Shown: piece after piece, positions 19,550 to 45,367 of the stretch
How the letters are laid out: each line of letters begins with the position of its first letter
How positions within the stretch are numbered: position 1 is the stretch's first letter
From: Gammaproteobacteria bacterium
Lineage (GTDB): Bacteria; Pseudomonadota; Gammaproteobacteria; Pseudomonadales; Azotimanducaceae
DNA length: 45,367 bases
Assembly: GCA_026708185.1 (NCBI GenBank)
Contig: JAPOVK010000041.1
Coordinates: 1 to 45,367 of the forward strand
Reading direction: 5' to 3'
Translations under genes and position numbers: made by a program
The notes under the pieces: generated by a model
Told to the model about the DNA's origin: nothing
Database searches by the model: none
Seen by the model: the letters and a program-made list of their open reading frames with translations, nothing else

Positions 19550-19858
19550 GTAGCGACGTTTCTTTAGAGCCGCGCAGTGTACGCCAATGGCCGTGGCCAG
19601 ATGCAGTGGAGCGCGGGTGTTTGGGCGTACATTCTGCGACGCCGGAGAACGCGGCGCGTTTTCCGTGTCGCGTCGCCCTGAGGCGACGGGCCTAGTGTGA
19701 TCACGCGCTTACTGCGCATTGTTGCATGCGTGGCGCAGGCCCCCCGCGCTCCCCGGCTGAGGGCTCCTTCACACTCCCTGCGGTTTGCCCCAATGCTCCG
19801 TCCATGCGGGACGTGGTAGAGTGCCAAGTTGGTATCGGGCACGACCGGGAAGTACGGT
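19550..19858. other. Divergent gatC/mreB promoter region
   Basis: A 309 bp gene-free interval that must carry the promoters of gatCAB (leftward) and mreBCD (rightward). A hairpin with CGTCGCC arms (19671-19677 and 19682-19688, CTGA loop) lies in the middle. A GTGATCAC palindrome follows at about 19697-19704. A truncated copy of the 45 bp palindromic repeat sits at 19739-19767. I could not assign a confident -35/-10 pair for either direction. Confidence 0.5.
19739..19767 (-). repeat. Truncated copy of the 45 bp palindromic repeat
   Basis: Reading the minus strand, this begins GGAGCCCTCAGCCGGGGAGC and continues into one hairpin arm, differing by one base from GCGAGGGGC. The second arm is missing. 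It is in the same orientation as the copies in murD and rsmH. It lies about 90 bp before the mreB start codon, inside the probable promoter or leader region. Confidence 0.75.
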
Positions 19859-20899
19859 TTGAAGCTCCTAGGCGGACGTTTCTCGCGCGATCTGGCGATT
19901 GACCTCGGCACGGCGAATACGCTGGTCTACTCCCGTGATCAGGGCATCATTCTCGACGAGCCGTCGGTCGTGGCGATCCGCAATGACGGCAACCGCCACC
20001 ATCGCGTAATCGCCGTCGGTCTGGACGCCAAGCGGATGCTCGGCCGCACGCCCGCCAACATCCGCGCGATCCGCCCGCTCAAGGACGGCGTCATCGCGGA
20101 TTTCGCGGTCACAGAGGAAATGCTCAAGCATTTCATCTCGAAGGTGCACCAGGACTCCTGGATCCGACCCAGCCCTAGGGTCCTGATCAGCGTGCCATGC
20201 AAGTCGACCCCGGTGGAGCGCAAGGCGATCCGGGAATCCGCCAAGTCGGCCGGCGCGCGCGACGTCCGCCTGATCGAAGAACCCATGGCGGCCGCGCTCG
20301 GTGCGGGTCTGCCGGTTCACGAGGCGATCGGCACCATGGTCGTGGACATCGGCGGCGGCACCACCGAGATCGCCATCATCTCGTTGAGCGGTGTCGTGTA
20401 TTCCGACACTGTTCGCGTCGGCGGCGACCGATTCGACGAGACCATCATCAACTATGTCCGCCGAACCAAGGGGAGCCTAATCGGCGAGGCCAACTCCGAG
20501 CAGATCAAGCAACAGATCGGCGTCGCCTACCAACAGGCGGAGGACGACGTCCAGGAGATCACGGTTCGCGGCCACAACCTGTCCCTTGGCGTGCCGCGGA
20601 GCTTCAAGCTCAACAGCAACGATCTCCTGGAAGCCCTGCGGGACCCGCTCGCAATGATCGTACAGGCGGTCAAGAATGCGCTCGAGGCCACGCCGCCCGA
20701 ACTGTCGGGGGACATCGCCGAGACCGGCGTCGTCCTGACCGGCGGCGGCGCGCTGCTGAAGGACCTCGACGTGCTCGTTGCGGAAGAGACCGGCTTGCCG
20801 GTGATCATCGCCGAGCAGCCGTTGACCTGCGTCGCCCGCGGTGGCGGGCGGGCACTCGAGGACTTCGAGGGGTACGCCGACTTGCTCTGGGACGAGTAG
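19859..20899 (+). CDS. mreB: Rod-shape actin homologue MreB
   Basis: A protein of 346 residues. Actin-fold phosphate loops are [11 protein letters not shown] and [16 protein letters not shown], with [61 protein letters not shown] and [14 protein letters not shown]. MreB filaments lie under the inner membrane and direct lateral-wall synthesis with MreC, MreD, RodA and PBP2. The TTG at 19859 ([20 protein letters not shown]) gives the usual length and has GGGAAG upstream; a further TTG at 19829 would add ten residues. It heads mreB-mreC-mreD-maf and indicates a rod-shaped cell. Confidence 0.96.
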
Positions 20900-21023
20900 G
20901 CCACCTTCACCAAACTAGCCATAGGGATGCGTCGCTTTCATCGCGCGATCGCCCGTAGGCGTTGCGAAACATCGGCTTAAGTGCAAGGATTCCGCCGCCG
21001 CAAGACCAACAGGCAGCCCCATC

Positions 21024-21923
21024 GTGCTCGGCAGGTCCTCGAGATCCCCGCGCCGGCGACGGCAACCGACCGCTGATTCCCTGTTCGCCCGGCAGCGAAG
21101 CGGCATCTACAGGCTGTCGCTGTTGGTCATGCTGTCGGGCTTATTGATGGTCGTGGATCAGAACACGCGGTGGCTCGCGCCTGCCAGGTTCGTGATCGGT
21201 ACCGCCCTCGACCCGTTGGAGTTCGCTGCGCGCTCGCCCTATCTCGCCTTCCGCGAGATCGCCGACTTTTTCACCGACCGCGCCACCTTGCAGGACCGCC
21301 TGACGGCCTTGGAGGACGAGAACCTCGAACTCAAGGCGGTGCTACTGCGGTTCGATGCCATCGCCCAGGAAAACGACACGTTGCGGGCGCTGCTGAACTC
21401 CCAAGCTCCGCTGGCACACACGACCTTGATCGCCGAACTGATCGCCCTCGTTCCGGAACCCGCGGAAGCGATCCTGGACAAGGGACGGCGCCACGGTGTC
21501 CGCGTCGGGCAGCCCGTGATCGATGCGGCAGGCCTTTTCGGCCAAGTCGTGGAAACGACCGCTATCACCAGCAACGTGCGCCTAGTCACCGACCCGTCCC
21601 ACGCCGTGCCGGTGTACGTCCTCCGTAACGGCGTGCGAGCGATCGCAGTCGGCGACGGCTTGGGCAACCTGACGCTCAAGTACGCTGCCGCGACACTAGA
21701 CGTGCGCGTTGGCGACGAGTTGAACTGTTCCGGGCTCGGCGGACGCTTCCCGTACGGATACCCGGTCGGCGTCGTCACCGGGACGACGCAGGACGCGGCC
21801 GAACCGTTCCTGCGCACGACCATCAAGCCCCGCGCGGCGCTCGATCGGTCCCGCCATCTGTTGGTGCTGACCGGCATTCCAGGGGATCGAGCCCGCGTCG
21901 ACGGAGCGTCAATTAGTGACTAA
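21024..21923 (+). CDS. mreC: Rod-shape protein MreC
   Basis: A protein of 299 residues with a basic cytoplasmic N-terminus (RSSRSPRRRRQP), one membrane helix (YRLSLLVMLSGLLMVVDQ), a coiled coil (LQDRLTALEDENLELKAVLLRFDAIAQENDTLRALL) and the periplasmic beta-barrel domain (DKGRRHGVRVGQPVIDAAGLFGQVVETTAITSNVRLVTDPSHAVPV, CSGLGGRFPYGYPVGVV). MreC links MreB to the wall-synthesis enzymes. The start is GTG. The stop overlaps the mreD start by eight bases. Confidence 0.93.
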   Translation: MLGRSSRSPRRRRQPTADSLFARQRSGIYRLSLLVMLSGLLMVVDQNTRWLAPARFVIGTALDPLEFAARSPYLAFREIADFFTDRATLQDRLTALEDENLELKAVLLRFDAIAQENDTLRALLNSQAPLAHTTLIAELIALVPEPAEAILDKGRRHGVRVGQPVIDAAGLFGQVVETTAITSNVRLVTDPSHAVPVYVLRNGVRAIAVGDGLGNLTLKYAAATLDVRVGDELNCSGLGGRFPYGYPVGVVTGTTQDAAEPFLRTTIKPRAALDRSRHLLVLTGIPGDRARVDGASISD

Positions 21924-22401
21924 CCGGTACGCGCTGGTCGCGGCGACCGTCCTCGGCGCACTGCTCCTCACCGCCGCTCGTTTGCCCGTCGAAGCGCCGG
22001 AGTGGGTGCGCTGGCTCCGGCCCGACTGGGCACTGGCCGTGTTGCTGTATTGGACCTTGATCGCCCCCGCGCGCCTGGCGATCGTTTGGGCATGGCTGAT
22101 GGGCATTCTCGTCGATGTGCTTTACGGCGATCTGCTCGGCCTGCATGCCATGACCCTCGCGTTGGCGGTCTTCGCCACCGCACGATTCCAGCAGCGGCTA
22201 GTGCTTTTCAAGCTGCTACAGCAAGCCGGTTTCGTCGCCGGCGCCGCCTTGGCCACGGAGCTTGCCCGAGCGCTGTTCCGGGCCGCGGCGGTGGGCGCTG
22301 ATGTTTCGCCATTCCTGCTGGTGCCGCCGCTGGCAACGGCCGCCGTGTTCGTGCTGCTTGTGGTCGCGGTCCCGCGGCAGACGAAACGGTTCGTCGAGTG
22401 A
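21916..22401 (+). CDS. mreD: Rod-shape membrane protein MreD
   Basis: A hydrophobic protein of 161 residues with about five membrane helices. It matches MreD in WALAVLLYWTLIAPARLAIVWAWLMGILVDVLYGDLLGLHAMTLALAVF. It works with MreC in the elongation complex. Start GTG, overlapping mreC; its stop overlaps the maf start as GTGA. Confidence 0.9.
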   Translation: MTNRYALVAATVLGALLLTAARLPVEAPEWVRWLRPDWALAVLLYWTLIAPARLAIVWAWLMGILVDVLYGDLLGLHAMTLALAVFATARFQQRLVLFKLLQQAGFVAGAALATELARALFRAAAVGADVSPFLLVPPLATAAVFVLLVVAVPRQTKRFVE

Positions 22402-22979
22402 CACCGGAACACATCGTCCTCGCATCGTCGTCTCCACGCCGCGCCGCCCTGCTTCGCCAAGCGCGTATCCCGTTCCGCGTCCAAACACCCGACGTCGACG
22501 AGACGGCCGAAGCCGGCGAGTCCGGACAGGACTACGTCACAAGGCTTGCCCGGACGAAGGCGCGCGCGGTCCGCGAATCGTTACCCGTGGTGGCTGCGGA
22601 CACGGTGGTCACCATCGATGGCCAATTGCTTGGCAAACCCCGGGACAAGCCGCATTTCGTCACCATGATGCGCACCCTCTCGGGCCGCGAGCATCGCGTG
22701 CTCACCGCCGTCGCCCTGCGCTGGGGCGTGCGCGAGGCCGTCCGCACAGTCGGCGCAATGGTCACCCTGCGCCATATCGCGCCCGCCGAGATCGATGCCT
22801 ACTGGTCCACCGGCGAACCCCAAGACAAGGCCGGGGGCTACGGCATCCAAGGGCTCGGCGGCACATTCGTGCGCATGGTGCACGGCAGCTATCACGCCGT
22901 CGTCGGCTTGCCATTGGCCGAAACCGAGGAGTTGCTGGCGGCCTTCGGAATCGATGCGTGGCACTGGCGGACGAGTTGA
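22398..22979 (+). CDS. maf: Maf-family nucleoside triphosphate pyrophosphatase
   Basis: A protein of 193 residues with HIVLASSSPRRAALLRQ at the N-terminus, then VVAADTVVTIDGQLLGKPRD with the catalytic Asp, MMRTLSGREHRVLTAVAL and DKAGGYGIQGLGGTFVRMVHGSYHAVVGLPL. This is the YhdE-type subfamily, which hydrolyses dTTP, UTP and modified pyrimidine nucleotides as house-cleaning. Start GTG overlapping the mreD stop. Maf next to mreBCD and rng is the common gammaproteobacterial order. Confidence 0.94.
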   Translation: MTPEHIVLASSSPRRAALLRQARIPFRVQTPDVDETAEAGESGQDYVTRLARTKARAVRESLPVVAADTVVTIDGQLLGKPRDKPHFVTMMRTLSGREHRVLTAVALRWGVREAVRTVGAMVTLRHIAPAEIDAYWSTGEPQDKAGGYGIQGLGGTFVRMVHGSYHAVVGLPLAETEELLAAFGIDAWHWRTS

Positions 22980-23130
22980 TTCCCGACCGGGGCGGCGCCG
23001 ATGCCGCATTCGACAGAGGCACGACAACGCGCCCCACACGGTCGGCGGGGCGATGTGCGGGCAAAACGCCGCCCGCGGTGGGAGAATGGCGAAAAAACTC
23101 AAGCGGCAACGCCACTGAAGGAACCACCCG

Positions 23131-24750
23131 GTGTCCGAACAACTCCTCGTTGACACCAACGCGTTTGAAACGCGCATCGCCCTGTTGCGCGATGGCGAGC
23201 CGGTCGAAATCCACCTGCAGCGCCCGGCCAGCGACCCGAAGGCCCGACCGGGAAGCCTGGTCGGTAACATCTACCTAGGCAGGGTCGCGCGTATTGCACC
23301 CGCAATCCAGGCTGCATTCGTAGATATCGGGACGCAAGCGCTCGGCGCGCTGTTCAACGAGCCGTACCGAACCGATTTCGACACGGGGGCAACTCCACGC
23401 GGGACGAATGGCGCCGGGCCTGTCCGGGAAGGCGATCACATCCTGGTCCAGGTCGCCAGGGAGCCGCTGAAGGGTCGCGGCGGAGGCCACGGCAAGGGGC
23501 CGAGACTCAGCGCCAATCCTTCACTCGTCGGCCGCTACGTGGTGGCTTTTCCGTTGGCAACGCGCACGGGCCGCGAAGGGCTCGCCACTGAGTACGGGCC
23601 GGGAGAGCCTTCAGCCGGGGAGCGCGAGGGGCTCGCCCCCCGCAAGGAGCGGGTCAACCTGTCGCGCCGACTCGTCGCCGACGGCGAGCGCAGCCGCCTC
23701 GGCACACTCGTGGCCGACGTCCTCCAAGACCTCGGCCTGCCATGGGACTGCATCGTGCGGACCGCGGCCGCAGGCGCCACGCGCACGGAGATCGCGGCCG
23801 ACATCGCCTATCTATGTCGCCTCTGGCAGCAGATTCGGCACCGGCAAGAACGCACTCAGGCGGCACCAAAACTCCTGTTTCACGAGCTACCCGCCATGCT
23901 ACGCACGGTCCGCGATTTGGCGGGGCCGACCTTAGGCACGATCCTCGTGAACGACGACGACGCCTGCGCCACCGTTCGTAGTCACGTCGAAGCGCATTTC
24001 CCCGCCTTTCGCGACAAGGTCGTGCGCTATCGAAGCACGCGACCGCTGTTCGACGCCTATGGCGTGGAAGCTGCCGTCGACAGCATTCTCGACCCCCGCG
24101 TCGAACTCCCAAGCGGCGGCCAACTGGTGATCGAGCACACCGAGGCCATGACCACCATCGACGTCGACAGCGGTATCGCATTGGATTCCGCCAACCGGGC
24201 TGAGACGGCCCTCGTGACCAATCTGGAAGCCGCTACGGCCATACCGCGTCAACTGCGCTTGCGCAACATCGGCGGCATCATCGTCGTGGACTTCATCGGC
24301 ATGGTCGCGGACGAACACCGCGACCGGGTGCACCGCACACTCCTCGAGGCCGCGAACGACGACCCGGCGCGGTTCACCGCCTCGGGATTCTCCGACCTCG
24401 GCCTCGTGGAAATCAGTCGGCGCCGGATCCGCGACAGCCTGCTCAGCCAGTTGAGCGGCGATTGCCCGGATTGCGTCGGGCGGGGCTACGCCAAGTCGGC
24501 GCAGAGCACGTGTTTCGACATATTCCGCACGCTGTTGCGTCGCACAGCCGTCGACGGCCCCGGTCTCTCGAGCTACGTCCTGCACGCTGCGGAAGCGGTC
24601 GTCGACCGCTTGCTCGACGAGGACGCGCACCACCTCGCCGCCCTCGTAGGCCGAACGGGGCGAAACGTGGAACTCCAAGTGGAGCCGGCCTATCGAAACG
24701 ACCAGTTCGACCTCATCGGCGTGCCAAGGCCCGGAACGGAAACAGCATGA
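23131..24750 (+). CDS. rng: Ribonuclease G with an in-frame repeat insertion
   Basis: An RNase E/G-family protein of 539 residues: start LLVDTNAFETRIALLRDGEPVEIHLQRP, S1 domain VGNIYLGRVARIAPAIQAAFVDIG, then VQVAREPLKGRGGGHGKGPRLS. The catalytic Asp motifs are TTIDVDSG and GGIIVVDFIGM, and the zinc-link cysteines are in GDCPDCVGRGY. RNase G trims the 5' end of 16S rRNA and degrades some mRNAs. Between RYVVAFPL and VNLSRRL, where the family has a short GVSxRI loop, residues 159-173 ([15 protein letters not shown]) are encoded by one copy of the 45 bp palindromic repeat. The start is GTG, preceded by AAGGAA. The stop overlaps the yhdP start as ATGA. Confidence 0.95.
   Translation: MSEQLLVDTNAFETRIALLRDGEPVEIHLQRPASDPKARPGSLVGNIYLGRVARIAPAIQAAFVDIGTQALGALFNEPYRTDFDTGATPRGTNGAGPVREGDHILVQVAREPLKGRGGGHGKGPRLSANPSLVGRYVVAFPLATRTGREGLATEYGPGEPSAGEREGLAPRKERVNLSRRLVADGERSRLGTLVADVLQDLGLPWDCIVRTAAAGATRTEIAADIAYLCRLWQQIRHRQERTQAAPKLLFHELPAMLRTVRDLAGPTLGTILVNDDDACATVRSHVEAHFPAFRDKVVRYRSTRPLFDAYGVEAAVDSILDPRVELPSGGQLVIEHTEAMTTIDVDSGIALDSANRAETALVTNLEAATAIPRQLRLRNIGGIIVVDFIGMVADEHRDRVHRTLLEAANDDPARFTASGFSDLGLVEISRRRIRDSLLSQLSGDCPDCVGRGYAKSAQSTCFDIFRTLLRRTAVDGPGLSSYVLHAAEAVVDRLLDEDAHHLAALVGRTGRNVELQVEPAYRNDQFDLIGVPRPGTETA
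23604..23648 (+). repeat. 45 bp palindromic repeat inside rng coding sequence
   Basis: A single unit aligned base for base with the arrays at 32.5 and 35.2 kb: GAGCCTTCAGCC, GGGGAGC, then arms GCGAGGGGC and GCCCCCCGC around two bases. One base of the right arm is mutated (T to C). It is translated as [15 protein letters not shown] without shifting the frame. Confidence 0.85.
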
Positions 24751-30016: not shown

Positions 30017-30019
30017 GGG

Positions 30020-30076
30020 CGTCGCTGCGGCGACGGCGCGCCACGGGCGCGATCGAGGCGAACCGCAAGCGGTTCG
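30020..30076. repeat. Two short perfect hairpins between tldD and pmbA
   Basis: CGTCGC (30020-30025), TGCG loop, GCGACG (30030-30035). Then CGAACCGC (30059-30066), AA loop, GCGGTTCG (30069-30076). The second has the CCGC-loop-GCGG core also found at 6473-6492, at 44828-44846 and in the long units of the arrays near lpxC and ftsQ. They lie in the 150 bp gap between tldD and pmbA. Confidence 0.55.
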
Positions 30077-30166
30077 ACGCTCCGCATTCTCCCGCCGACG
30101 TAACGAGACTTGACGCAATTGACGACATTCGACTCTCCCAAGACATCTAGGCAGCGGCCTACCGGA

Positions 30167-32519: not shown

Positions 32520-32710
32520 GGAGCCCTCAGCCGGGGAGCGCGAGGGGAAGCCCCTCGCATGGAGGAGCCCTCAGCCGGGGAGCGCGAGGGGCCTGCCCCT
32601 CGCATGGAGGAGCCCTCAGCCGGGGAGCGCGAGGGGAAGCCCCTCGCATGGAAGAGCCCCCAGCCGGGGAGCGCCCCGCCGCGAAGCGGAGGGCGGGGCC
32701 CTGCCCCTCG
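32520..32710 (+). repeat. Tandem array of four palindromic repeat units between lpxC and ftsZ
   Basis: Units begin at 32520, 32564, 32609 and 32653 (periods 44, 45, 44 bp). Each reads GGAGCCCTCAGCC, GGGGAGC, then arms GCGAGGGG and CCCCTCGC with a 3-4 base loop, then ATGGA. The fourth unit is longer (~58 bp) because its hairpin is replaced by GCCCCGCC...GGGCGGGGC built round a CCGCGAAGCGG core. It fills most of the 287 bp gap; the remaining 76 bp (32444-32519) is the lpxC leader. Its hairpins could end the ftsZ transcript or stabilise it, but no U-tract follows. Confidence 0.92.
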
Positions 32711-32730
32711 AATAACAAGGCCGCCCTCGT

Positions 32731-33876: not shown

Positions 33877-33913
33877 GTCTACTCTCCTTAGTCCACGGCC
33901 GTCGGCCGCCTTG

Positions 33914-35146: not shown

Positions 35147-36049
35147 CTAAGGAGCCCTCAGCCCGGGGAGCGCGAGGGGCTCGTCCCTCGCAAGAGGAGC
35201 CCTCAGCCCGGGGAGCGCGAGGGGCTCGTCCCTCGCAAGGGGAGCCCTCAGCCCGGGGAGCGCCCCCGCCGCGAAGCGGGGGGCGGGGGCCTCGCCCCTC
35301 GCCAAGAGAGCCCGCGTTGAGTCCATCCGATCCGCGACTTGCCCCGCGCTATCAGGATCGGCACTCAACCAACGCACCGCCACGCCGGTCTCGTAACGGG
35401 CATCGACCCGCGCCACGCGCGCGATCTCGAACTCAAGAGCGCGCCGATGGACGACCAGGAAGCGACGAAACCGCTCGCCTAGGGACGTACTGCCCAAGAC
35501 CACCTCTACACCCCCGGCCACGGTCGCAATCCAGGTGCCTGTCTCGTCCTGTTCGAGACGATCCAGGGTCAAGTTGTCGGTGCGGGCGATCTCGTCAAGC
35601 AATGTGTTGAGACGCATGGCCTCGGCGCTGCTGGCATGGGATGCCTTGAGCACGGGCAGCCGGCTCAGCAGCGGATCGCGGTCTTCTGGCGGGAGCGCGA
35701 CGACGTTGCCGCCGGTGGTTAGATAGAGTTCGTCGTCGTCGCCCCAGCGCGCCGCCAGGGTCTGCCGGCTGACCGTGACATGGAGGATGTCCGGCCAAAG
35801 CCGCCGGACCTGCACGTCCCGCACCCAGTCGAGATCCTCAACCGCGCGCACCACATCGGACGCGCCGCTAAAGGCCGGGTGCGCCAGGGTCGAAGCCACC
35901 GCTGCCTGCACCTCCCGGCCCTCGGCGTGCGTGAGATCACCGGCGAGGCGCACGGTCTTGACGTCCACGGTGGCGAGCGTGTTCGCAAAGCTCAACGCGC
36001 CGAGCGCAGCGCCACCAAGGACCAACACCGTGATGAACGCTCGTATCAT
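35147..36049 (-). CDS. ftsQ: Cell-division protein FtsQ with a repeat-encoded C-terminal tail
   Basis: A protein of 300 residues with one N-terminal membrane helix (AFITVLVLGGAALGALSF), a POTRA domain (VKTVRLAGDLTHAEGREVQAAVA, LDWVRDVQVRRLWPDILHVTVSRQTLAARWGDDDELYLTTGG) and the FtsQ beta domain ending YETGVAVRWLSA, where the family normally stops soon after. The last ~51 residues come from the repeat array at 35151-35302, read antisense, as two copies of LRAPLARDEPLALPG plus a longer first unit. FtsQ holds FtsB/FtsL in the divisome through its C-terminal periplasmic part, so this tail would be periplasmic. murC ends 17 bp upstream, with no murB or ddl between. Confidence 0.92.
   Translation of the reverse strand: MIRAFITVLVLGGAALGALSFANTLATVDVKTVRLAGDLTHAEGREVQAAVASTLAHPAFSGASDVVRAVEDLDWVRDVQVRRLWPDILHVTVSRQTLAARWGDDDELYLTTGGNVVALPPEDRDPLLSRLPVLKASHASSAEAMRLNTLLDEIARTDNLTLDRLEQDETGTWIATVAGGVEVVLGSTSLGERFRRFLVVHRRALEFEIARVARVDARYETGVAVRWLSADPDSAGQVADRMDSTRALLARGEAPAPRFAAGALPGLRAPLARDEPLALPGLRAPLARDEPLALPGLRAP
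35151..35302 (+). repeat. Tandem array of three palindromic repeat units inside ftsQ 3' end
   Basis: Units start at 35151, 35196 and 35241, exactly 45 bp apart. The first two read GGAGCCCTCAGCCC, GGGGAGC, then GCGAGGGGC, two bases, GTCCCTCGC. The third is the long form, with GCCCCCGCC...GGGCGGGGGC round a CCGCGAAGCGG core, as in the last unit of the lpxC-ftsZ array. The array lies antisense to ftsQ and starts only a few bases from the ftsQ stop and the ftsA start. Confidence 0.93.
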
Positions 36050-36066
36050 CAGGCCACGCCTCCCAT

Positions 36067-37479: not shown

Positions 37480-38636
37480 GCGTAGCCCCCTTGTGTTCTC
37501 GAGGAGGCCAGGTCGCTCGGCGGGAATCCCGCGCCGCTTGAGTCGCCCCCGCGCTCGTACTCGTAGTCCACGCGCAATGCAAGGGCCACCGCCGCCGAAC
37601 ACACGAGCAGGCTGTTGCCGCCGAAACTGACGAACGGCAGGGTGAGTCCCTTGGTCGGCAGCACACCCGTGTTCACGCCGACGTTGATGATCGTCTGTAT
37701 GCCGATCAACAGGCCGGCGCCATAGGCGAGCGACCCCGCGAACACCTGCCCCGCCGCGACCACGCGACGCCCGATCCCGAACATCCGTACCGTGAGAAAC
37801 CCCAGCAGCGCCAAAACGCCCAACGCGCCGACCAAGCCGAGCTCCTCCGCGATCACCGCATAGATGAAGTCGTTGTGGGCTTCCGGCAAATAGAAGAGCT
37901 TCTGCACGCCCTCGCCGAGCCCGATGCCGAAGTACTCGCCGCGACCGAACCCGATCAGGGCTTGCGTCAATTGGTACCCCGCGTCGAGTTGGTCCGCCCA
38001 AGGGTCGACGAACGAGAGTAGCCGCACGACGCGGTACGGTTCGATCACCGCGGCACCGGCCAGCAGCATACCGCCGAAGACGACCAACAGGGCGAAGTCG
38101 CGCGGTCGCGCGCCAGCGAGAAACAGCATCCCGCCCATGACCAAGGCAAGCACCACCGTACTGCCAAAGTCCGGTTGCACGAGGATGACCGCCAACAGCC
38201 CGCCCACCCAGATCACGGGCTTGAGCAACGCGCTCAGACTCACGCTCACTTGGCCGCCGACGCGGGCGAGGTAGCCCGCCAAATAGATGATCGCCAGCAG
38301 CTTCGCCGCCTCGGCCGGCTGGAACCGCGCGAGGCCGAGGTCGATCCACCGGTGCGCGCCCTTGGCCGCCGCGGCGAGCCCAGGCAGGAAGACCAGGAGA
38401 CAGAGGGCGAACGCGAGCACGAGGCAAGGCTTGTGGACGATTTCCCAAGCGCGCAACGGCACGACGGCAAGCAACCCGAATACGCACACGGCCACCGCGA
38501 CGTAGAGGCCGTGCCGGAACAGGTAGTAATAGGTCCCCTCCGGCTGGCCCGCCGCCGCCGAAGTCACCATCACCAAGCCAACGAGAAGAAGCGCACCCCA
38601 TGCGAGTACCAGCGTCATGTCCAGGCGTTCGGTCAC
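37476..38636 (-). CDS. ftsW: Division-specific peptidoglycan polymerase FtsW
   Basis: A SEDS-family protein of 386 residues with about ten membrane helices. Conserved blocks: KGAHRWIDLGLARFQPAEAAKLLAIIYLAGYLAR, VQPDFGSTVVLA with the catalytic Asp, SFVDPWADQLDAGYQLTQALIGFGRGEYFGIGLGEGVQKLFYLPEAHNDFIYAVIAEELGL, and NVGVNTGVLPTKGLTLPFVSFGGNSLL. FtsW polymerises lipid II with FtsI at the septum. The GTG start overlaps the murD stop as GTGA, immediately past the murD repeat array. The stop overlaps murC. Confidence 0.96.
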   Translation of the reverse strand: MTERLDMTLVLAWGALLLVGLVMVTSAAAGQPEGTYYYLFRHGLYVAVAVCVFGLLAVVPLRAWEIVHKPCLVLAFALCLLVFLPGLAAAAKGAHRWIDLGLARFQPAEAAKLLAIIYLAGYLARVGGQVSVSLSALLKPVIWVGGLLAVILVQPDFGSTVVLALVMGGMLFLAGARPRDFALLVVFGGMLLAGAAVIEPYRVVRLLSFVDPWADQLDAGYQLTQALIGFGRGEYFGIGLGEGVQKLFYLPEAHNDFIYAVIAEELGLVGALGVLALLGFLTVRMFGIGRRVVAAGQVFAGSLAYGAGLLIGIQTIINVGVNTGVLPTKGLTLPFVSFGGNSLLVCSAAVALALRVDYEYERGGDSSGAGFPPSDLASSRTQGGYA

Positions 38637-40126
38637 GACGCCTCATCATGCGAGGGGCCCGCCCCTCGCGCTCCCCCGCTGAGGGCTCCTTCTTGCGAGG
38701 GGCCCGCCCCTCGCGCTCCCCCGCTGAGGGCTCCTTTTTGCGAGGCGCCCGCCCCTCGCGCTCCGCCGCCGAGGGCTCCCCGTCCGGCGGATTCCGAACG
38801 GTCACGGGCCGCCCATTCCGAGACCGCGGCGGCGAAATCCTCACCGCGCGCCTCGTAGCTGTCGTACATGTCGAAGCTCGCACACGCGGGCGAGAGCAAC
38901 ACGCTTTGGCCCTCCCGGGCATGCCGGCCGGCCAACTGCACCGCGTGGCGCATGCCCTCGGCCCGCAGCACGGGCGCGCAGCCCGCGAGTCCGCGTTCGA
39001 GCGTTTCGGCATCGCGGCCGATCAACACCAGGTGCGACACGTGCCGCGCCACGGCGGACCTCAGCGCTTCGAAGGATGCGCCCTTGGCATCGCCACCCGC
39101 GATCAGCACGATGTTCCCATCGCCTGTGCCGAAACCCTCCAATGCGGCTACGACGGCACCGACGTTGGTCGCTTTCGAGTCGTCGATGAAGGCCACCCCG
39201 CCCACCTCGGCAACGGAAGCGGCGCGATGCGGAAGCCCGCCGGCAAGCGCACGCTTGAGCGCTCGGTGCGTGGTCGCGACGGGAACCTCGGTCAATTGGT
39301 GGGCGATGGCAGCCGCTGCCAACGCGTTGAAGTGGTTGTGGCGGCCCTTGAGAGCCATGTCGGCGACAGGAACACGGGCACCGGCGATGACCAGATCGTC
39401 ATCGACCCGCCACGACGGATCCCGGTTGAGCGCAATCGTGCGCCCTTGGAAGTCCGCTGGCGGCGCGGTCAACGGATCGTCGGCGTTGTACACCGCACAT
39501 TTCGCGCCCGCATAGATCCGCTGCTTGGCGGCCGCGTATGCCTTGAGGTCGGGATAGCGATCCTGATGATCGGCGGTGACATTGAGGATGGCGGCGACGG
39601 TGAGGCTCGGCGCTGCGATCCGCTCGAGCTGAAAGCTCGACAGTTCGAGCACGTAGGCGTCGACCCCGTCCGCCAAGAGGTCCAGGGCCGGCGTGCCGAG
39701 GTTGCCGCCAGCGGGTGCAGAGAGACCGCCAGCGGCGAGCAACTCGCTCGCCAACGCGGTCACGGTGCTTTTGCCGTTGGTGCCCGTGATACCGACGACC
39801 GGCGCGCCGGCGGCCTCGAGGAACAACTCGATGTCGCTGGTGAGCGCAAGGCCGGCGGCACGCGCCTGGCGCACTAAGCAGTGGTCGAGAGAAACGCCGG
39901 GACTCACGATCACGCGACCAGCGGTCCCCACGGCCCGCCCGAAGTCGGCGACCGAGAGGATCTCGACCTCGGGGTATCGTTCGCGCACGGCATCGACGAA
40001 GGGCGGCGACGACCGCGTATCCAGGGCGTACACCTGTTCCCCGGTGTCGCCACCGCCGCACAGGTGCTTCACGCAAGAGAATCCCGTCGCCCCTAGGCCA
40101 ATGACGATGGTGTCGTGGCCGTTCAT
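38633..40126 (-). CDS. murD: UDP-MurNAc-L-Ala-D-Glu ligase with repeat-encoded C-terminal tail
   Basis: A protein of 497 residues: [100 protein letters not shown] and [26 protein letters not shown]. It adds D-glutamate to UDP-MurNAc-L-Ala. The natural family end is about residue 440. Residues ~450-494 are three tandem 15-residue units ([45 protein letters not shown]) from the repeat array at 38645-38779. The ATG at 40126 overlaps the mraY stop. Confidence 0.95.
38645..38779 (-). repeat. Tandem array of three 45 bp palindromic units inside murD 3' end
   Basis: Three contiguous 45 bp units in minus orientation; their GGAGCCCTC starts lie at 38779, 38734 and 38689. Arms GCGAGGGGC and GCCCCTCGC are perfect in the two units nearest the murD stop; the first unit is diverged (GGCGCCTCGC). 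The array is sense to murD and ends nine bases before the murD stop codon, so the GTGA overlap with ftsW is preserved. Confidence 0.94.
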
Positions 40127-41205
40127 CTGAGCTTGAGCGTCGACAGACCCACGAGTACGAGCACCAGGGTGACGATCCACAGCCGCACGATGACGCGAGG
40201 CTCCGGCCAGCCCATGAGTTCGAAGTGGTGATGAATGGGCGCCATGCGGAAGACGCGCTTGCCCGTAAGCCGAAACGACACCACCTGCATGATGACCGAC
40301 ACCGCCTCCACCACGAACAACCCGCCCATGATCAGCATCACGATCTCGTGGCGTACCACCACCGCGACCACGCCCAATGCCGCGCCGAGCGCCAACGCGC
40401 CGATGTCGCCCATGAAGACCTGCGCCGGGTAGGCGTTGAACCACAGGAACCCGAGGCCGGCGCCGATCAGCGCGCCGCAGAACACGGACAGCTCGCCGGC
40501 CCCCGGAATATGGGGGATCTGCAGGTAGGCAGCGAACTCCATGTGGCCGGCCAGGTAGGCGATCAGGCCGAGCGCCGCAGCCACCATCACCGTGGGCAGA
40601 ATGGCCAACCCATCCAGGCCGTCCGTGAGGTTGACGGCGTTGCTCATGAACACGATGACCAAGTAGGTCAGTACCACGAAGCCGATGCCAAGCGGCAATG
40701 CGGCCTCCTTGAAGAACGGCACGATCAGGCTCGTCTCGGCTGGCGTGCTGGCCGCGCTGAAGAGCACGACGGCTGCCAAGAATCCGAACACGGACTGCCA
40801 GAGGTATTTCCACCCGGCCGACAGACCGCGCGAATTGCGCTCGCTGATCTTGAGGTAGTCGTCGACCCATCCAATGGCGCCGAACGACACCACGACGCCG
40901 AGGACGATCCAGATGTAGCGGTTGGCGAGGTCGCACCAGAGCAATGTGGCCACCACGATCGCCACGAGGATCAACGCGCCGCCCATCGTGGGCGTCCCCG
41001 CCTTTGTCAGGTGGCTCTTGGGGCCCAGTTCGCGCACGACCTGGCCGATCTGGTGATGGGAAAGCTGACGAATCATCGTCGGCCCCAGGAGCAACGAGAT
41101 CGCGAGCGCGGTCAAGGCGCTCACCATCGTCCGGAAAGTCAGGTACTGGAAGACGTTGAATCCGCTGATGACCGTCGCCAGGTATTCGGTGAGCCAGAGC
41201 AGCAT
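40123..41205 (-). CDS. mraY: Phospho-MurNAc-pentapeptide transferase MraY
   Basis: A protein of 360 residues with about ten membrane helices. Motifs: [60 protein letters not shown] and [24 protein letters not shown]. It transfers phospho-MurNAc-pentapeptide to undecaprenyl phosphate, making lipid I. Its substrate is the MurF product, yet murF is absent between murE and mraY; only 45 bp separate them. The stop overlaps the murD start (ATGA). Confidence 0.96.
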
Positions 41206-41250
41206 TATTCGGCCCCCGCCCGTTCGGGTGACCGCGGTTCGTGGGCGCGG

Positions 41251-42717
41251 TTAGGTTGCATTTCGGTCGTCGCGTGGCGTTGGTGGCTCTTGTCTGCGGC
41301 GCCGCGCCGCTAGGGTCTCGGCGACCGCCGCGTCGCTGAACGGGACGCGCTCGCCGCCGACTTCCTGGTAGCGTTCGTGCCCCTTCCCCGCGAGCAGGAC
41401 GACGTCGCCCGTTTGCGCTTGACGCAAAGCCGTGGCGATCGCCCGACGCCGGTCGGCAATGCGCAGCAGTTGCTGCGGCGCCCGGAACCCCGCAGCGACG
41501 TCGTCGAGGATGCGCTCGGGTGACTCGGTCCGCGGATTGTCCGAGGTGGCGATCACCAGGTCCGCACCGCGCTCGGCGGCCTGGGCCATGAGGGCGCGCT
41601 TGCCCCGGTCGCGATCCCCGCCGCAGCCGAATACGAGGATCACACGCCCCGCGCCGGCGACATGGCTGCGGACCGCCTGAAGCGCCGCATCGAGCGCGTC
41701 CGGCGTGTGGGCATAGTCCACGACGACGCGCGGCGAACGGGCCACGAGCTGCATCCTGCCGGGCACGGCATGCAATGTCTTCATTGCGTCGACGACCGCC
41801 GCCTGCGGCATGCCGAGCAAACAGCATGTCGCCAACGTGGCGGCAGCGTTGTAGACCGAAAACGGCCCGTAGAAATGCGGCAACGTAAACGCGTTTTCGC
41901 CCCACGGCGTTCGCCACCGGCCGGCGATGCCGTCCGGCCCGTAGGTGATCCCATCCCAACGTACATCCGCGTCGACGCCGAAGGAAAGCGCCGAGGTGCC
42001 GCTCGGCAAGTCCGCGATGATCGACCGGCCGAGCGCATCGTCGGCGTTCACCACGGCGCCGAGCGCAAGGGACCGTTCAAAGAGCTTGGCCTTCGCGGCT
42101 CCGTAGCGCGCGACCGAGCCATGGTAGTCGAGGTGGTCGCGACCGAGATTAGTGAACACGCCAACCGCGAAGTCCACCGCGTCGACGCGGCCTTGATCCA
42201 GGGCATGGGAGCTCACCTCCAAGGCCACTGCGTTGAAGCCTTGGTGTCTGAGTGCGCGCAGGCGCGCGAGCAGCGTGATCGGATCCGCCGTCGTCATGTC
42301 AGCAGCGCACAGCGATGGCGGCGAGCCCCAGCCCAGCGTACCCATGTAGGCGGCGGTCCCCGCCACGCGGGCGACGTTGTATGCCACCGTGGTCTTGCCG
42401 TTGGTGCCGGTGACGCCGACGACGTCGAGTTCCCCGCTTGGCGCGTCGAAGAAGCGGCGCGCAAAGTCACCGATCCGCCGTCCAACCCCGCCCATGACCA
42501 CACTCGGCACGTCGACGGCGACCGGCCGCTCGGAGACGACGGCGACGGCCCCGGCCGCCACGGCGTCGGACACGAAGTCGTGGCCGTCGTATGCACTCCC
42601 GCGGTAGGCGAAGAACACATCCCCCGGGCGGACACGACGCGAGTCACTGGCCAAACCACCGATCACCGTCGCCGGTGCGTCCGGACGCCCCAGCAAATCC
42701 GCCAAGGTCATCGTCAT
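41251..42717 (-). CDS. murE: UDP-MurNAc-tripeptide synthetase, meso-diaminopimelate type
   Basis: A protein of 488 residues: GLASDSRRVRPGDVFFAYRG, VVGVTGTNGKTTVAYNVARVAG, ALEVSSHALDQGRV, FTNLGRDHLDYHGSVARYGAAKAKLF, VVDYAHTPDALDAAL, FGCGGDRDRGKRALM and the DNPRTESP motif that selects meso-diaminopimelate. It adds the third residue of the stem peptide. The ATG overlaps the ftsI stop (ATGA). It is unfused: no MurF domain follows the MurE C-terminus. Confidence 0.96.
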   Translation of the reverse strand: MTMTLADLLGRPDAPATVIGGLASDSRRVRPGDVFFAYRGSAYDGHDFVSDAVAAGAVAVVSERPVAVDVPSVVMGGVGRRIGDFARRFFDAPSGELDVVGVTGTNGKTTVAYNVARVAGTAAYMGTLGWGSPPSLCAADMTTADPITLLARLRALRHQGFNAVALEVSSHALDQGRVDAVDFAVGVFTNLGRDHLDYHGSVARYGAAKAKLFERSLALGAVVNADDALGRSIIADLPSGTSALSFGVDADVRWDGITYGPDGIAGRWRTPWGENAFTLPHFYGPFSVYNAAATLATCCLLGMPQAAVVDAMKTLHAVPGRMQLVARSPRVVVDYAHTPDALDAALQAVRSHVAGAGRVILVFGCGGDRDRGKRALMAQAAERGADLVIATSDNPRTESPERILDDVAAGFRAPQQLLRIADRRRAIATALRQAQTGDVVLLAGKGHERYQEVGGERVPFSDAAVAETLAARRRRQEPPTPRDDRNAT

Positions 42718-44489
42718 GCGCGCCCCCCGCGACGTTCGATGGCGGCGAGGTCCGCAGGCGATGCGGTCGCGTCGTCGGGCGGCACGCCAAGCACTCGCAG
42801 CGCGCGTTCAGCTACGCGCGCGAAGATCGGCGCGGCCACAACGCCGCCACCGATCAGGCCACCGCGCGGTTCGTTGACTACGACCACCAAGACGATGCGC
42901 GGGGTCGAGGCCGGCGCGAAGCCGGCGAAAAACGCCACGTGCGAGCGATCGTCGTAGCCGGACGTGCCAACCTTGCGTGCCGTTCCCGTCTTGCCTGCCG
43001 CCGTGTATCCCGTCGGGCGACCCCTAGGCGCCGTGCCACCGGGTTCGAGCACGCCACGCATCATTGACGTCAAGACCGTCACCGCCGGCTCCTGGAACAC
43101 CACGTCCTCACGAACCGCGGCCCCGCGCAGAATCGTCAGGTCGCGACGGACGCCGCCGGCCGCCAATGCGAGATAGGCGCGCGCGAGTTGCAGCGGCGAC
43201 ACGGTCAACCCGTATCCGTAGGCCAACGTCGCTCGACCGATCGGCTTGTCCAGGTCGTCGGTGCGCAACTCGCCGATCGCCTCGCCGGGCAAGCCACTTC
43301 CCGTCAGATCGCCGAAACCCGCTTGCTGGAGGGCGTCGAAGACGGCGTACTCGGGCAATGACAGCGCGATCTTGGCGATGCCAACCTGGCTCGACTTGGC
43401 GACGACCGTGGCGACGTCGATCCGACCGCGGTTCAGCGGATCCTCGATCAGCTTGCGGCCAACGCGGAAGTACCCGGGCGCGGTGTCGACTTCCGTCTCG
43501 GGCTGGTAGTCGCCGCTTTGCAGAGCGGCGAGTACGGCGAACGGCTTCACGGTCGAGCCCGGCTCGTAGACATCGGCGACCGCCCGGTTGCGGACGCCCG
43601 AGACGCCGCGATTGGGCCAATCATTCGGGTTGAACGAGGGCAGGTTGGCCAGCGCCAGGATCTCGCCGGAAGCCGCGTCGAGCATGACCAGGGAACCCGA
43701 CGACGCACCGTGCCGCTCCACTGCAGCCTTGAGCTCGCGGTAGGCGAGAAACTGCAGCCGCAGGTCCAACGACAGGTGCAGGTCTTCGCCGAACTCCGGC
43801 ATACGGACGTAGCCGAGGCTCTTGATCAACTGCCTCTTGCGGTCCTGCAGGATCCGTTTGACACCCGGAACACCGGCGAGGAAGTCGTTGAACATCAACT
43901 CGACACCCTCCTGGCCCACGTCGTCGACATTCGTACGCCCGACGACGTGGGCCACGGTCTCCCCGGCAGGGTAGAAGCGGTGGTATTCCCGTCCGATCCG
44001 GACACCCTCGATGTCCAGTGATTCAACCCGGGAGACAAGGTTTGGCGGCACGCGCCGAGCGAGGTTCGCGTATTGGGGGCTTCCGGCCGCCATGCGCGCC
44101 GCGAGCCGGGTCACATCCAGCTCCAGTGCGACCCCGAGACGACGGAGGTCGAAGTCGGTCAGCGTCGTCCGCGACGGATCGACCCAAACCTTCGCCATGG
44201 GTGCACTGACCGCCAACGGTTCGCCGTTGCGGTCGAAGATCATGCCGCGGTGCACGGGGATCGGGACCTCGCGCACCGACCTCGCGTCACCTTGCAGCTT
44301 GAGGAAGTCGCGCTCCGTGACCATGAGATAGCCGGCCCGGCCCGTCAGGCCGACCAACGCGATCACGAATCCGGCCACGACCGCACGGTGCCGCACCACC
44401 GTCGAGGTCGGCTCTCGTCCGACAGACCTCGCCAGGTCGCGCTTGCGCGCCCTAGCGGCCCGTGCCTGTCGCGAGGTCCGTCTGCTCAT
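42714..44489 (-). CDS. ftsI: Division transpeptidase FtsI (PBP3) with altered SxN motif
   Basis: A class B penicillin-binding protein of 591 residues. One N-terminal membrane helix (AVVAGFVIALVGLTGRAGYLM) is followed by the pedestal domain (VPVHRG-like IPVHRGMIFDRNGEPLAVSAP) and the transpeptidase with nucleophile Ser312 in EPGSTVKPF and KTGTA in YTAAGKTGTARKV. The SxN motif is Ser366-Ser367-Gln368 (KSSQVGIAKIAL) instead of Ser-Ser-Asn; the codon CAG at 43386-43388 is unambiguous. FtsI cross-links septal peptidoglycan together with FtsW. The start overlaps the ftsL stop; the stop overlaps the murE start. Confidence 0.95.
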   Translation of the reverse strand: MSRRTSRQARAARARKRDLARSVGREPTSTVVRHRAVVAGFVIALVGLTGRAGYLMVTERDFLKLQGDARSVREVPIPVHRGMIFDRNGEPLAVSAPMAKVWVDPSRTTLTDFDLRRLGVALELDVTRLAARMAAGSPQYANLARRVPPNLVSRVESLDIEGVRIGREYHRFYPAGETVAHVVGRTNVDDVGQEGVELMFNDFLAGVPGVKRILQDRKRQLIKSLGYVRMPEFGEDLHLSLDLRLQFLAYRELKAAVERHGASSGSLVMLDAASGEILALANLPSFNPNDWPNRGVSGVRNRAVADVYEPGSTVKPFAVLAALQSGDYQPETEVDTAPGYFRVGRKLIEDPLNRGRIDVATVVAKSSQVGIAKIALSLPEYAVFDALQQAGFGDLTGSGLPGEAIGELRTDDLDKPIGRATLAYGYGLTVSPLQLARAYLALAAGGVRRDLTILRGAAVREDVVFQEPAVTVLTSMMRGVLEPGGTAPRGRPTGYTAAGKTGTARKVGTSGYDDRSHVAFFAGFAPASTPRIVLVVVVNEPRGGLIGGGVVAAPIFARVAERALRVLGVPPDDATASPADLAAIERRGGRA

Positions 44490-44779
44490 CGCCGCACCCT
44501 GACCACCTCTTGCGGGAAGCCCATGCCAAGTTCCTCCCGCGCAACCCGTTCCACGTTGAGGTAGCCCGCAAAGGTCGCGCGCTCGAGGAGCAGCAGGCGG
44601 TGCCGCGTCAGGTGTTCATCCTGAACGGCCTGAATGTCCGAGAGCCGCTGGTTGTAGCCGCGCACCTCGTTGGACTGCACCGCCGTCTGCACGCCGGTTA
44701 CGGCGACCGCGGCATATGTCGCCAAGCCGAAGGCGACCCACAAGCCCGTCGACGAACGTCCCCTCTGCCCCTTCACCAT
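44486..44779 (-). CDS. ftsL: Cell-division protein FtsL
   Basis: A small bitopic protein of 97-99 residues. It has a basic N-terminus (VKGQRGRSS), one membrane helix (GLWVAFGLATYAAVAVTGVQ), a periplasmic coiled coil (NEVRGYNQRLSDIQAVQDEHLTRHRLLLLERATF) and the typical LNVERVAREELGM end. FtsL forms the FtsQLB complex that activates FtsWI. The ATG at 44779 has AGGTGA upstream; a GTG two codons earlier (44785) overlaps the rsmH stop. It sits in the standard position between rsmH and ftsI. Confidence 0.92.
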   Translation of the reverse strand: MVKGQRGRSSTGLWVAFGLATYAAVAVTGVQTAVQSNEVRGYNQRLSDIQAVQDEHLTRHRLLLLERATFAGYLNVERVAREELGMGFPQEVVRVRR

Positions 44780-44781
44780 GC

Positions 44782-45367
44782 TCACCTAAGGCCGGCACCC
44801 GCCGCTGGCGACGTTTGCATGCGAGACGCGACCGCTTCGCGGTCGCCCCGAGAATTCGCTGCGCGAATTCTCCCGGCGGCGAGGCGGCGCCGACCGCCAG
44901 GCAACAAGACTTGGGCTTGTTTCATGGAAGGGGCTCGCCCCTCGCGCTCCCCCGCTGAGGGCTCCTTCTCTACCGCCTGCAGGAAGGCGCTTCGGGCGCG
45001 CGGATTGGCCTCGATCTCCTCGGGCGACGGCCGTTGGCCATTGCCGACGCCGGCGACGGGTCGCGCGCGCCCCGCTGCAAGACCGCGGACGGGCAGCCGC
45101 CTTGGAAGGTCCGGGCCGCGAACCCACTGCCGGAAGCGCTGGCGCACGAGGCGATGCTCGAGGCTGTGGAATGTGATCGTCACGAGCCGGCCGCCGGCAC
45201 CGAGCGCATCGAAAGCTGCGTCGAGACCGCGCGCCAGCTCGTTGAGTTCGTCGTTGAGGTGGATCCGGATTGCCTGGAACACCCGGGTCGCGGTGTTCCT
45301 TGCAGCTTGGCCCCCAGGCATTGCGGCGCGTACGACTGCAGCCAACTCGGCCGTGGTTTCGAGCGGT
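44782..45367 (-). CDS. rsmH: 16S rRNA m4C1402 methyltransferase RsmH, C-terminal part (5' end beyond window) with repeat-encoded tail
   Basis: About 194 residues are visible; the frame runs off the right edge. LETTAELAAVVRAAMPGG, ATRVFQAIRIHLNDELNELARGLDAAFDALGAGGRLVTITFHSLEHRLVRQRFRQW and SPEEIEANPRARSAFLQAVEK are classic RsmH. The family normally ends just after the last block. Here ~60 more residues follow: [15 protein letters not shown] from a 45 bp repeat (44921-44965), then a tail encoded over two perfect hairpins (44828-44872). The enzyme methylates C1402 of 16S rRNA and is the first dcw gene visible. The stop overlaps a possible ftsL GTG start. Confidence 0.93.
   Translation of the reverse strand, partial: PLETTAELAAVVRAAMPGGQAARNTATRVFQAIRIHLNDELNELARGLDAAFDALGAGGRLVTITFHSLEHRLVRQRFRQWVRGPDLPRRLPVRGLAAGRARPVAGVGNGQRPSPEEIEANPRARSAFLQAVEKEPSAGEREGRAPSMKQAQVLLPGGRRRLAAGRIRAANSRGDREAVASRMQTSPAAGAGLR
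44828..44872. repeat. Two adjacent perfect hairpins in the rsmH tail
   Basis: GCGACCGC (44828-44835), TTC loop, GCGGTCGC (44839-44846): an 8 bp stem with the CCGC-loop-GCGG core. Then GAGAATTCGC (44850-44859), TGC loop, GCGAATTCTC (44863-44872): a 10 bp stem. Both are within the translated extension of rsmH, about 40-90 bp before the ftsL start, and could shape the rsmH-ftsL mRNA. Confidence 0.85.
44921..44965 (-). repeat. 45 bp palindromic repeat inside rsmH 3' end
   Basis: A single unit in minus orientation: GGAGCCCTCAGCG, GGGGAGC, GCGAGGGGC, two bases, then a right arm GCCCCTTCC that has lost part of its complementarity. It is read in the same frame as the rng copy, giving [15 protein letters not shown]. 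Confidence 0.88.

What the first reader, a model, noticed from the sequence alone, without database searches (positions are those of the whole stretch)
19739..44965. A dispersed 44-45 bp palindromic element, unknown to me, spread through the cell-shape and division genes
Seen: six loci (19739-19767, 23604-23648, 32520-32710, 35151-35302, 38645-38779, 44921-44965) share GGAGCCCTCAGC, GGGGAGC and a hairpin with arms GCGAGGGGC and GCCCCTCGC. They occur in both orientations, as single, truncated or head-to-tail copies. Four of the six are translated. Known parallels are REP/BIME elements, usually extragenic and mobilised by RAYT transposases, and Rickettsia palindromic elements, which insert in frame into genes. 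Inference: a new family of small non-autonomous palindromic elements that tolerates insertion into essential genes. I recognise no mobilising enzyme in the window.
Basis: partly seen in the sequence, partly recalled or inferred. Interest (0 to 1): 0.88.

Follow-up and report, generated by a model that had tools for sequence, protein, structure and literature searches.

The report
Gene-invading 45-base hairpin repeats
A 45-base hairpin-forming DNA repeat has spread, as single units or short tandem arrays, through the genomes of a group of uncultured gammaproteobacteria, in many cases inside conserved genes, where it adds a short soluble peptide without breaking the reading frame.

Summary
The window's six loci hold 13 units of 44-45 nt (two in a longer form); the genome holds 248 pattern matches, 2 for the backwards control. 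The unit is a bulged hairpin plus an 8-bp hairpin. None of 30 multi-unit arrays sampled is of mixed orientation. It disperses: in a relative about 90% identical, 12 of 17 hand-picked sites with an orthologue are clearly empty, though 5 of 6 window loci are shared. The division-gene stretches taken from 11 other genus genomes hold no unit. Arrays differ by exact 45-nt multiples in three cases and are homogenised within each array. Copies sit inside RNase G, Lon, trigger factor, ZipA, RsmH, HolB and others; at 9 of 9 internal sites aligned the net insert is a multiple of 3, and 14 of 17 internal arrays use one frame ([14 protein letters not shown]) although five of six are open. Junctions favour GA, like the unit's own start. 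In behaviour it is closest to Rickettsia palindromic elements and intragenic REPs, but has no GTAG or CGTC tag and only head-to-tail arrays. No mobilising enzyme was found: RAYT genes occur in the genus, none beside the unit, and a 33-copy genome of another genus has none.

The parts
19723..19767 (-). one decayed unit, intergenic, upstream of mreB (gene at 19829-20899 +); the close relative has two units here
23604..23648 (+). one unit inserted in frame inside rng (RNase G, 23131-24750 +), encoding [16 protein letters not shown]; clean empty site in the 90%-identical relative (net 42 nt)
32520..32652 (+). three head-to-tail units (44/45/44 nt) between lpxC and ftsZ, intergenic
32653..32710 (+). 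terminal unit of longer form with an inner palindrome CCCCGCCGCGAAGCGGAGGGCGGGG and a variant start AGAGCCCCCAGC
35151..35240 (+). two 45-nt units at the 3' end of ftsQ (35147-36049 -), translated antisense as GLRAPLARDEPLALP repeats; the units agree within each genome but differ between relatives
35241..35302 (+). long-form third unit in ftsQ
38645..38779 (-). three 45-nt units at the C-terminus of murD (38633-40126 -), next to the ftsW start; the relative has one unit (exactly 90 nt less)
44921..44965 (-). one unit just after the methyltransferase domain of rsmH/mraW, read as [13 protein letters not shown]; also present in the close relative

Best explanation
This is a small, recently active, selfish protein-coding palindromic element of the general kind of Rickettsia palindromic elements. 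A copy of one unit (about 45 nt: bulged hairpin plus 8-bp hairpin) is placed next to a GA or GAG that resembles the unit's own GAGCC start. Shown: dispersal to new sites, the GA preference, head-to-tail arrays only. Arrays then gain and lose units locally, by slippage or unequal recombination; exact 45-nt multiples (three cases) and within-array homogenisation are shown, the process is inferred. Inside genes, copies survive mostly when the net insert is a multiple of three, in sense orientation and in the frame giving the hydrophilic peptide [14 protein letters not shown]. The bias is shown; selection on host proteins as its cause is inferred. The copying step most likely needs an enzyme acting in trans on the hairpin as single-stranded DNA. 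That enzyme is unidentified and this step is the least certain (about 0.35 on its own).
For: Copy number 248 against control 2. 131 units in 61 arrays in 883,826 nt of the genome; 0 of 30 multi-unit arrays mixed; spacing 45 in 60 of 70 steps. 20 of the 61 arrays, picked by hand, were queried in the relative G007: 3 had no orthologue, 12 were clearly empty, one probably empty (C4 37381), one decayed (C3 157634), three filled (3 vs 2, 4 vs 2 and 3 vs 3 units). Two more clean empty sites: rng and C1 12505. Five places are filled in G007 and empty here: w21881, w28555, w36053, C31 chunk position 6779 and C1 12812. No unit in division-gene stretches of 12.5-18.5 kb from 11 other genus genomes, against 12 units in the 16.5-kb stretch L121 of G007. 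Net insert is a multiple of 3 at 9 of 9 internal sites and 1 of 4 others. Frame: 14 of 17 internal arrays in one frame, 16 of 17 sense, with 5 of 6 frames open in at least 36 of 41 full units; about 6e-8 if the five were equally likely. Second sample, 47 loci from named genomes: 13 of 15 sense, 9 of 15 in that frame. Within-array distance 0.053 against 0.135 between arrays. GA at the junction in 9 of 13 empty alleles, 2.9 expected, 0 of 4000 random draws; GAG in 4 of 13, 0.76 expected, 0.006.
Against: No enzyme found. Many sites are shared, not polymorphic: 5 of 6 window loci are filled in G007 too, and so are four of the five arrays of this genome in the G007 stretches (most of which were fetched because they carry a unit). 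Not all array differences are whole units (C4 33545 and C1 9464 differ by partial or altered units). The frame bias could partly be adaptive rather than tolerance. The gene calls are from my own gene finder, and the 14 '5-prime-end' arrays may be mis-called starts. At one ankyrin-gene site the unit lies at a similar place in another species (L156) while the 90% relative is empty, which fits either a hot spot or precise loss. The monomer folds no better than shuffles (DNA z -0.69). Empty sites often differ from the flanks by a few bases, so exact ends are uncertain.
Confidence: 0.75

Rival explanations
1. It is a REP family proper, mobilised by the RAYT (TnpA-REP) transposases that exist in this genus.
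For: Hairpin preceded by GGAG in most units; RAYT-like genes in this genome (L050, L051). Copy number correlates with Y1_Tnp count across 16 genus genomes (Spearman 0.76, p 0.0007; RAYT-bearing 5-248 copies, lacking 0-15), without correction for kinship. TnpA-REP cuts at dinucleotides next to its hairpin (PMC8266576, passages).
Against: None of 19 Y1 loci in the genus and none of 22 in the family has the unit in the fetched flank of up to about 1.5 kb, often less at contig ends (only a 4-mismatch hairpin-like match in L080 and an 11-nt chance match in L284). Those looked at are flanked by other repeats. G021 (other genus, 100% complete) has 33 copies and no Y1_Tnp hit; 13 of the 21 other-genus genomes searched have Y1_Tnp with 0-3 pattern matches, as in controls. 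No GTAG or CGTC tag; no inverted dimer: 0 of 30 multi-unit arrays, and the nearest array of opposite orientation is 921 nt away.
Confidence: 0.22
2. No transposase is involved: replication template switching or single-strand repair at GAG microhomology copies the hairpin to new sites, and slippage makes the arrays.
For: GA(G) at junctions equals the unit's own start; 45-nt array steps and homogenisation; copies present in genomes lacking Y1_Tnp hits; small base changes around the empty sites.
Against: Insertion of one discrete unit with a sharp left end at unlinked loci in most sites; arrays within 10 kb are no more alike than distant ones (p 0.81), unlike local template switching.
Confidence: 0.25
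3. The repeat is an adaptive peptide linker or tag spread by selection on proteins.
For: Strong preference for one hydrophilic frame in genes.
Against: 17 of 57 non-edge arrays are called intergenic (16 if rsmH, cut by the window end, is counted as genic); other frames and antisense readings occur (ftsQ, murD; G021 murD); hosts are functionally unrelated; many insertions are lineage-specific.
Confidence: 0.06
4. Ordinary tandem repeats (VNTR) or assembly artefact.
For: Several contigs begin inside arrays (C1, C9, C13, C30, C49), as expected if arrays break assemblies.
Against: 31 of 61 arrays are single units at unrelated loci; the unit is in the single-contig genomes G012 and G013 and in 47 stretches of 14 named assemblies.
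Confidence: 0.02

Closest known systems
Rickettsia palindromic elements (RPE) and Wolbachia palindromic elements
   Same: Palindromic repeats inserted in frame in unrelated, conserved genes and also intergenic; solvent-exposed or unstructured positions (PMC10969869, PMC3767692, PMC2229807, PMC2996958: passages only).
   Different: Most RPEs are about 100-150 bp, though RPE-4 and RPE-6 are counted among the short CGTC REPs; here 45 nt, a multiple of three, in pure head-to-tail arrays. For RPE-4/6/7 in R. japonica each rickettsial orthologue has an insert at the same locus, whereas here many insertions are polymorphic between relatives about 90% identical. The ATGAC motif of RPE-4/6/7 is not in the unit consensus; RPE sequences were not aligned.
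GTAG- and CGTC-tagged REP superfamilies, including REPs inside genes
   Same: Small hairpins in many copies, some inside genes, stem and loop sizes in range; clusters encoding 43-82 residues inside genes are reported for Thauera and R. conorii (PMC3733652: outline, sections 5, 15, 16 and part 1 of 17 read).
   Different: No GTAG or CGTC tag; [quoted passage not shown] no Y1 gene found beside the unit.
PARCEL coding repeats
   Same: Palindromic DNA encoding tandem in-frame peptide repeats, dispersed in genomes (PMC2996958, abstract and passages).
   Different: PARCELs are 25-residue amphipathic domains in ORFs lacking assigned functions; here 15 residues, hydrophilic, in housekeeping genes and intergenic sites.
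YPAL elements of Yersinia
   Same: Recent mobility argued from empty and filled sites; co-translated with upstream genes (PMC2229807, passage).
   Different: About 168 bp; sequences not compared here.
IS200/IS605-type single-strand transposition (ISDra2, IS608)
   Same: Hairpin near the end and a target resembling the element's own end (recalled in part; guide-sequence logic from passages).
   Different: No transposase gene in the element, no flanking pair of distinct ends, enzyme not found.

Membership tests
Rickettsia palindromic elements | palindromic repeat inserted in frame into diverse conserved genes | tested here: met
   17 internal arrays, 15 in Pfam-recognised genes
Rickettsia palindromic elements | length about 100-150 bp | tested here: not met
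   unit 45 nt; RPE length from passages; RPE-4/-6 are shorter REP-type units
Rickettsia palindromic elements | RPE family sequence | not tested
   no RPE sequence was aligned; only the ATGAC motif was looked for in the consensus and is absent
Rickettsia palindromic elements | found in Rickettsia or Wolbachia | tested here: not met
   47 of 47 stretches matched in 84,980 species are in MAGs titled Gammaproteobacteria or Pseudomonadales (one 42-nt pattern)
REP (GTAG superfamily) | unpaired GTAG tag beside the stem | tested here: not met
   GGAG, GGTG or GGAA there in the 30 correctly set units; no GTAG
REP (CGTC superfamily) | CGTC tag | tested here: not met
   absent from the consensus
REP/BIME | predominantly inverted (head-to-head or tail-to-tail) dimers | tested here: not met
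   0 of 30 multi-unit arrays mixed, nearest opposite array 921 nt away; 0 of 53 arrays, single ones included, in other genomes
RAYT-mobilised REP | cognate RAYT gene flanked by the repeat | tested here: not met
   0 of 41 Y1 loci from 37 genomes searched; flanks at most about 1.5 kb
RAYT-mobilised REP | single-strand cleavage by TnpA-REP | not testable with these tools
   needs biochemistry
MITE | terminal inverted repeats and target-site duplication | tested here: inconclusive
   no terminal inverted repeat seen in the consensus; GA(G) on both sides may be target preference or a short duplication
PARCEL | 25-residue amphipathic tandem domain | tested here: not met
   15-residue hydrophilic unit
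known structured RNA | match to an Rfam family | tested here: not met
   0 matches in the window at gathering score

The most novel reading that the evidence does not exclude
A live, gene-adapted mini-element: a 15-codon hairpin with five open frames, one of them a soluble linker peptide, spreading through and expanding inside essential genes by an unrecognised, RAYT-independent mechanism that targets its own start sequence (GAG), so that each insertion creates the target for the next.
Probability: 0.3. Interest if true: 0.78.

Novelty: new variant of a known kind. Interest (0 to 1): 0.62.

Why it matters
Protein-coding palindromes are best known from Rickettsia, where the inserts studied are shared by all orthologues, so their entry into genes is hard to watch. 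Here filled and empty alleles differ between close relatives, array lengths change, and the same element sits in Lon, trigger factor, ZipA, RsmH and RNase G. That makes the entry route, the target rule and the cost to the host protein testable, and it is a natural series of linker-insertion experiments in essential genes.

Tried and rejected
RAYT as mobiliser: Y1_Tnp searched in this genome, 16 genus genomes (this one included) and 21 others of the family; loci read for the unit; not beside it. Local hopping: nearby arrays are not more alike. Covariation of the stems: units are nearly invariant, so the alignment says little (one row of 31, L045, is mis-set because I took the wrong offset; no consensus fold or pair count was run). 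A phage carrier: 0 matches to a 27-nt pattern in viral contigs. Rfam and tRNA: nothing in the window. Structure prediction of RNase G was not run, because relatives from the genome search are not among the sequences that tool says it accepts; instead the sequence match to solved RNase E shows query residues 148-175, which hold the insert, as a stretch without counterpart between chain residues 137 and 138 of 2vrt. Literature on this very repeat: none seen in searches (peptide EPSAGERE, 0 papers), 69, 72 and 96, in an open-licence library only; for these I saw listings, and opened six papers. Sponge association of the host MAGs is recalled from accession-style names, not tested. The junction script left out site C31 23355; an earlier version failed.
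Full report
What is there. The window (contig C35 of a 5.13-Mb, 65-contig genome) holds six loci of a 44-45-nt unit, consensus GGAGCCCTCAGC(C/G)GGGGAGCGCGAGGGGCNNGCCCCTCGCANGNA. Folded alone it forms a small bulged hairpin (GCCCTC-AGCC-GGGG-A-GC) followed by an 8-bp hairpin (GCGAGGGG-CNNG-CCCCTCGC). The monomer's energy is not unusual for its composition (DNA z -0.69, RNA z -1.43); a tandem RNA dimer is more stable than 197 of 200 shuffles (z -2.59). A longer form with a second inner palindrome ends two of the window's arrays; a strict pattern matched 4 long forms in the sample, one of them in the window. Gene names in the window rest on Pfam.

Genome scale. The pattern GGAGCCCTCAGCNNGGGAGC with up to 2 mismatches has 248 matches in the genome against 2 for the backwards pattern. 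I took 883,826 nt (17%) of the genome, partly chosen around known copies, so densities are not unbiased. A profile of the unit found 131 units above 16 bits; the reversed sequence gave at most 12.8. They form 61 arrays (units joined up to 80 nt apart): 31 single units and 30 of two to six. None of the 30 is of mixed orientation, and the nearest array of opposite orientation is 921 nt away. Spacing is 45 in 60 of 70 steps.

Where it sits. With my own codon-based gene finder (repeats masked; 758 genes, 90% coding), 57 arrays not at a chunk edge are 17 internal to a gene, 9 at a 3' end, 14 at a 5' end and 17 intergenic; 4 more lie at chunk edges. If insertion were random and harmless about 90% would be internal, so genes are avoided overall. 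The 5' class may contain mis-called starts, and rsmH, cut by the window end, was counted as intergenic although its ORF reads through the unit. Of 17 internal hosts 15 have a Pfam match: Lon, trigger factor, ZipA, RsmH/MraW, RNase E/G, RseB, DNA polymerase III delta', an S4/pseudouridine synthase, GspJ, DsbD N-domain, an esterase, two ankyrin and two Uma2 proteins; 2 have none. In Lon the five units fall between the lid and the proteolytic domain; in the pseudouridine synthase between S4 and the catalytic domain; in ZipA before the FtsZ-binding domain; in RNase G in a stretch between the two parts that match RNase E. Others (RsmH, GspJ, DsbD) lie within the span of the matched domain.

Reading frame. 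Three sense frames and two antisense frames of the unit are stop-free in at least 36 of 41 full units; the third antisense frame always has a stop. Nevertheless 16 of 17 internal arrays are sense and 14 of 17 read [14 protein letters not shown] (about 6e-8 under equal use of five frames). In 47 loci from named genomes, 53 arrays (overlapping loci not removed; 11 at edges) gave 15 internal arrays, 13 sense and 9 in that frame (several are from the near relative G007). Exceptions are real: ftsQ and murD in the window, and murD of another genus (G021), use other readings.

Mobility. Its rng lacks the unit cleanly (net 42 nt in frame); of the eight rng sequences displayed, out of 16 loci, only this genome's has the insert. 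Five of the six window loci are filled in both; of these murD has one unit in G007 instead of three (exactly 90 nt less). G007 has arrays that this genome lacks at three places in the window. Twenty of the 61 arrays, picked by hand, were then queried: 3 had no orthologue, 12 were clearly empty, one probably empty, one decayed, and three filled (3 vs 2, 4 vs 2, 3 vs 3 units). Two empty sites lack arrays of 5 and 4 units as wholes. In five G007 stretches, one array of this genome is cleanly absent (C1 12505) and four are shared, and two G007 arrays are absent here; four of those five stretches had been fetched because they carry a unit. Division-gene stretches (12.5-18.5 kb) of 11 other genus genomes contain no unit, against 12 in the 16.5-kb stretch L121 of G007, so gain is the simpler direction; G002, G009 and G014 were not looked at there. 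In 13 aligned empty alleles the net difference is a multiple of 3 at 9 of 9 internal sites and 1 of 4 others; GA lies at the junction in 9 of 13 against 2.9 expected (0 of 4000 draws), GAG in 4 of 13 against 0.76 (0.006) and AG in 5 of 13 against 1.9 (0.03). Site C31 23355 could not be split by that script and was left out. Since the unit itself begins GAGCC, insertion next to GA(G) would also explain head-to-tail placement.

Array dynamics. Among 57 of 61 arrays with units of 28 bits or more, units within an array differ by 0.053 on average and between arrays by 0.135 (127 and 1596 comparisons). In ftsQ both genomes have three units, yet each genome's units share their own private variants. 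This is concerted evolution, most simply by slippage or unequal exchange. Differences in array length are exact multiples of 45 nt in three cases (murD 90, C36 90, C31 45), but C4 33545 and C1 9464 differ by partial or altered units. Arrays within 10 kb of each other are no more alike than others (47 pairs, p 0.81), so dispersal is not local.

Distribution. In one search (this genome and 57 relatives) the 15 other genus members have 0-132 matches (14 of 15 with any; those with 5 or fewer are near control level by count, although G012 and G013 have arrays by alignment). Of 42 genomes of other genera only G021 stands out, with 33; the rest have 0-3. A scan of 84,980 species with one 42-nt pattern found 47 stretches in 14 assemblies, all titled Gammaproteobacteria or Pseudomonadales MAGs; records near the window's genome may be left out there. 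Viral contigs gave none. Variants with the same GGAGCCCTCAGC start and 45-nt period but GCGCGGGGGA or TTGGGGGT middles occur in G009 and G014.

The enzyme. RAYT-like genes exist (of three proteins tested only the L076 type passes the NCBIfam cut-off) and copy number rises with Y1_Tnp number over 16 genomes, but no Y1 locus of 41 has the unit nearby, those read carry other repeats, and G021 has many copies without any Y1_Tnp hit. I therefore leave the mobiliser open; a HUH-type enzyme acting in trans and enzyme-free template switching are both compatible.

Known parallels. REPs inside genes, some in clusters, and RPEs are documented (PMC3733652 sections 5, 15, 16 and part 1 of 17; PMC10969869, PMC3767692, PMC2229807 and PMC2996958 passages). 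This element fails the tag and dimer criteria of REPs and the usual length and taxon criteria of RPEs, but works like an RPE. What looks new is the 45-nt head-to-tail form, the frame preference with five frames open, and polymorphic in-frame insertions between close relatives.

Noticed in passing
Looks like a second small mobile repeat.
   Followed up: partly
window 45367 end and G000 C42:191828-192514 (L210): The window's last gene and the last gene of contig C42 hold the two halves of one MraW domain (profile 181-308 and 6-190), and one G007 stretch spans both; so rsmH carries a second array of three units and the two contigs probably adjoin.
   Followed up: partly
window 41218-41311 and 30018-30162: Two stretches (about 94 and 145 nt) with no counterpart in relative G007; not of the 45-nt family.
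   Followed up: no
L050, L051 (G000 C23 and C13): RAYT-like genes beside copies of another repeat (GAAAAGGGCGATGTTCTG with TTGTCCACGC/GTGGGCAACCC blocks), perhaps their own element family.
   Followed up: partly
L067 (G021 C2 165500-170500): In another genus the unit sits inside murD (antisense frame) and near the end of a gene that I take for murC from its motif (recalled, not searched); both arrays end in an extended palindrome CAGCCGGGGAA..TTCCCCG..GCTGA.
   Followed up: partly
L211 15399-17573 and L156 4925-7102: An ankyrin-type protein carries the unit at a similar position in two species while the 90% relative is empty there: hot spot or precise loss.
   Followed up: partly
G000 contigs C1, C9, C13, C30, C49: Contigs begin inside arrays of the unit, so arrays probably break short-read assemblies and true copy number may be higher.
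   Followed up: no
G000 C3:1-200000 (L180-L189): No unit in the first 156 kb, then five arrays in the next 36 kb: distribution along the genome is uneven.
   Followed up: no
window 15621-16357: A stretch with a predicted gene (15631-16239) has no counterpart at the same place in relative G007.
   Followed up: no
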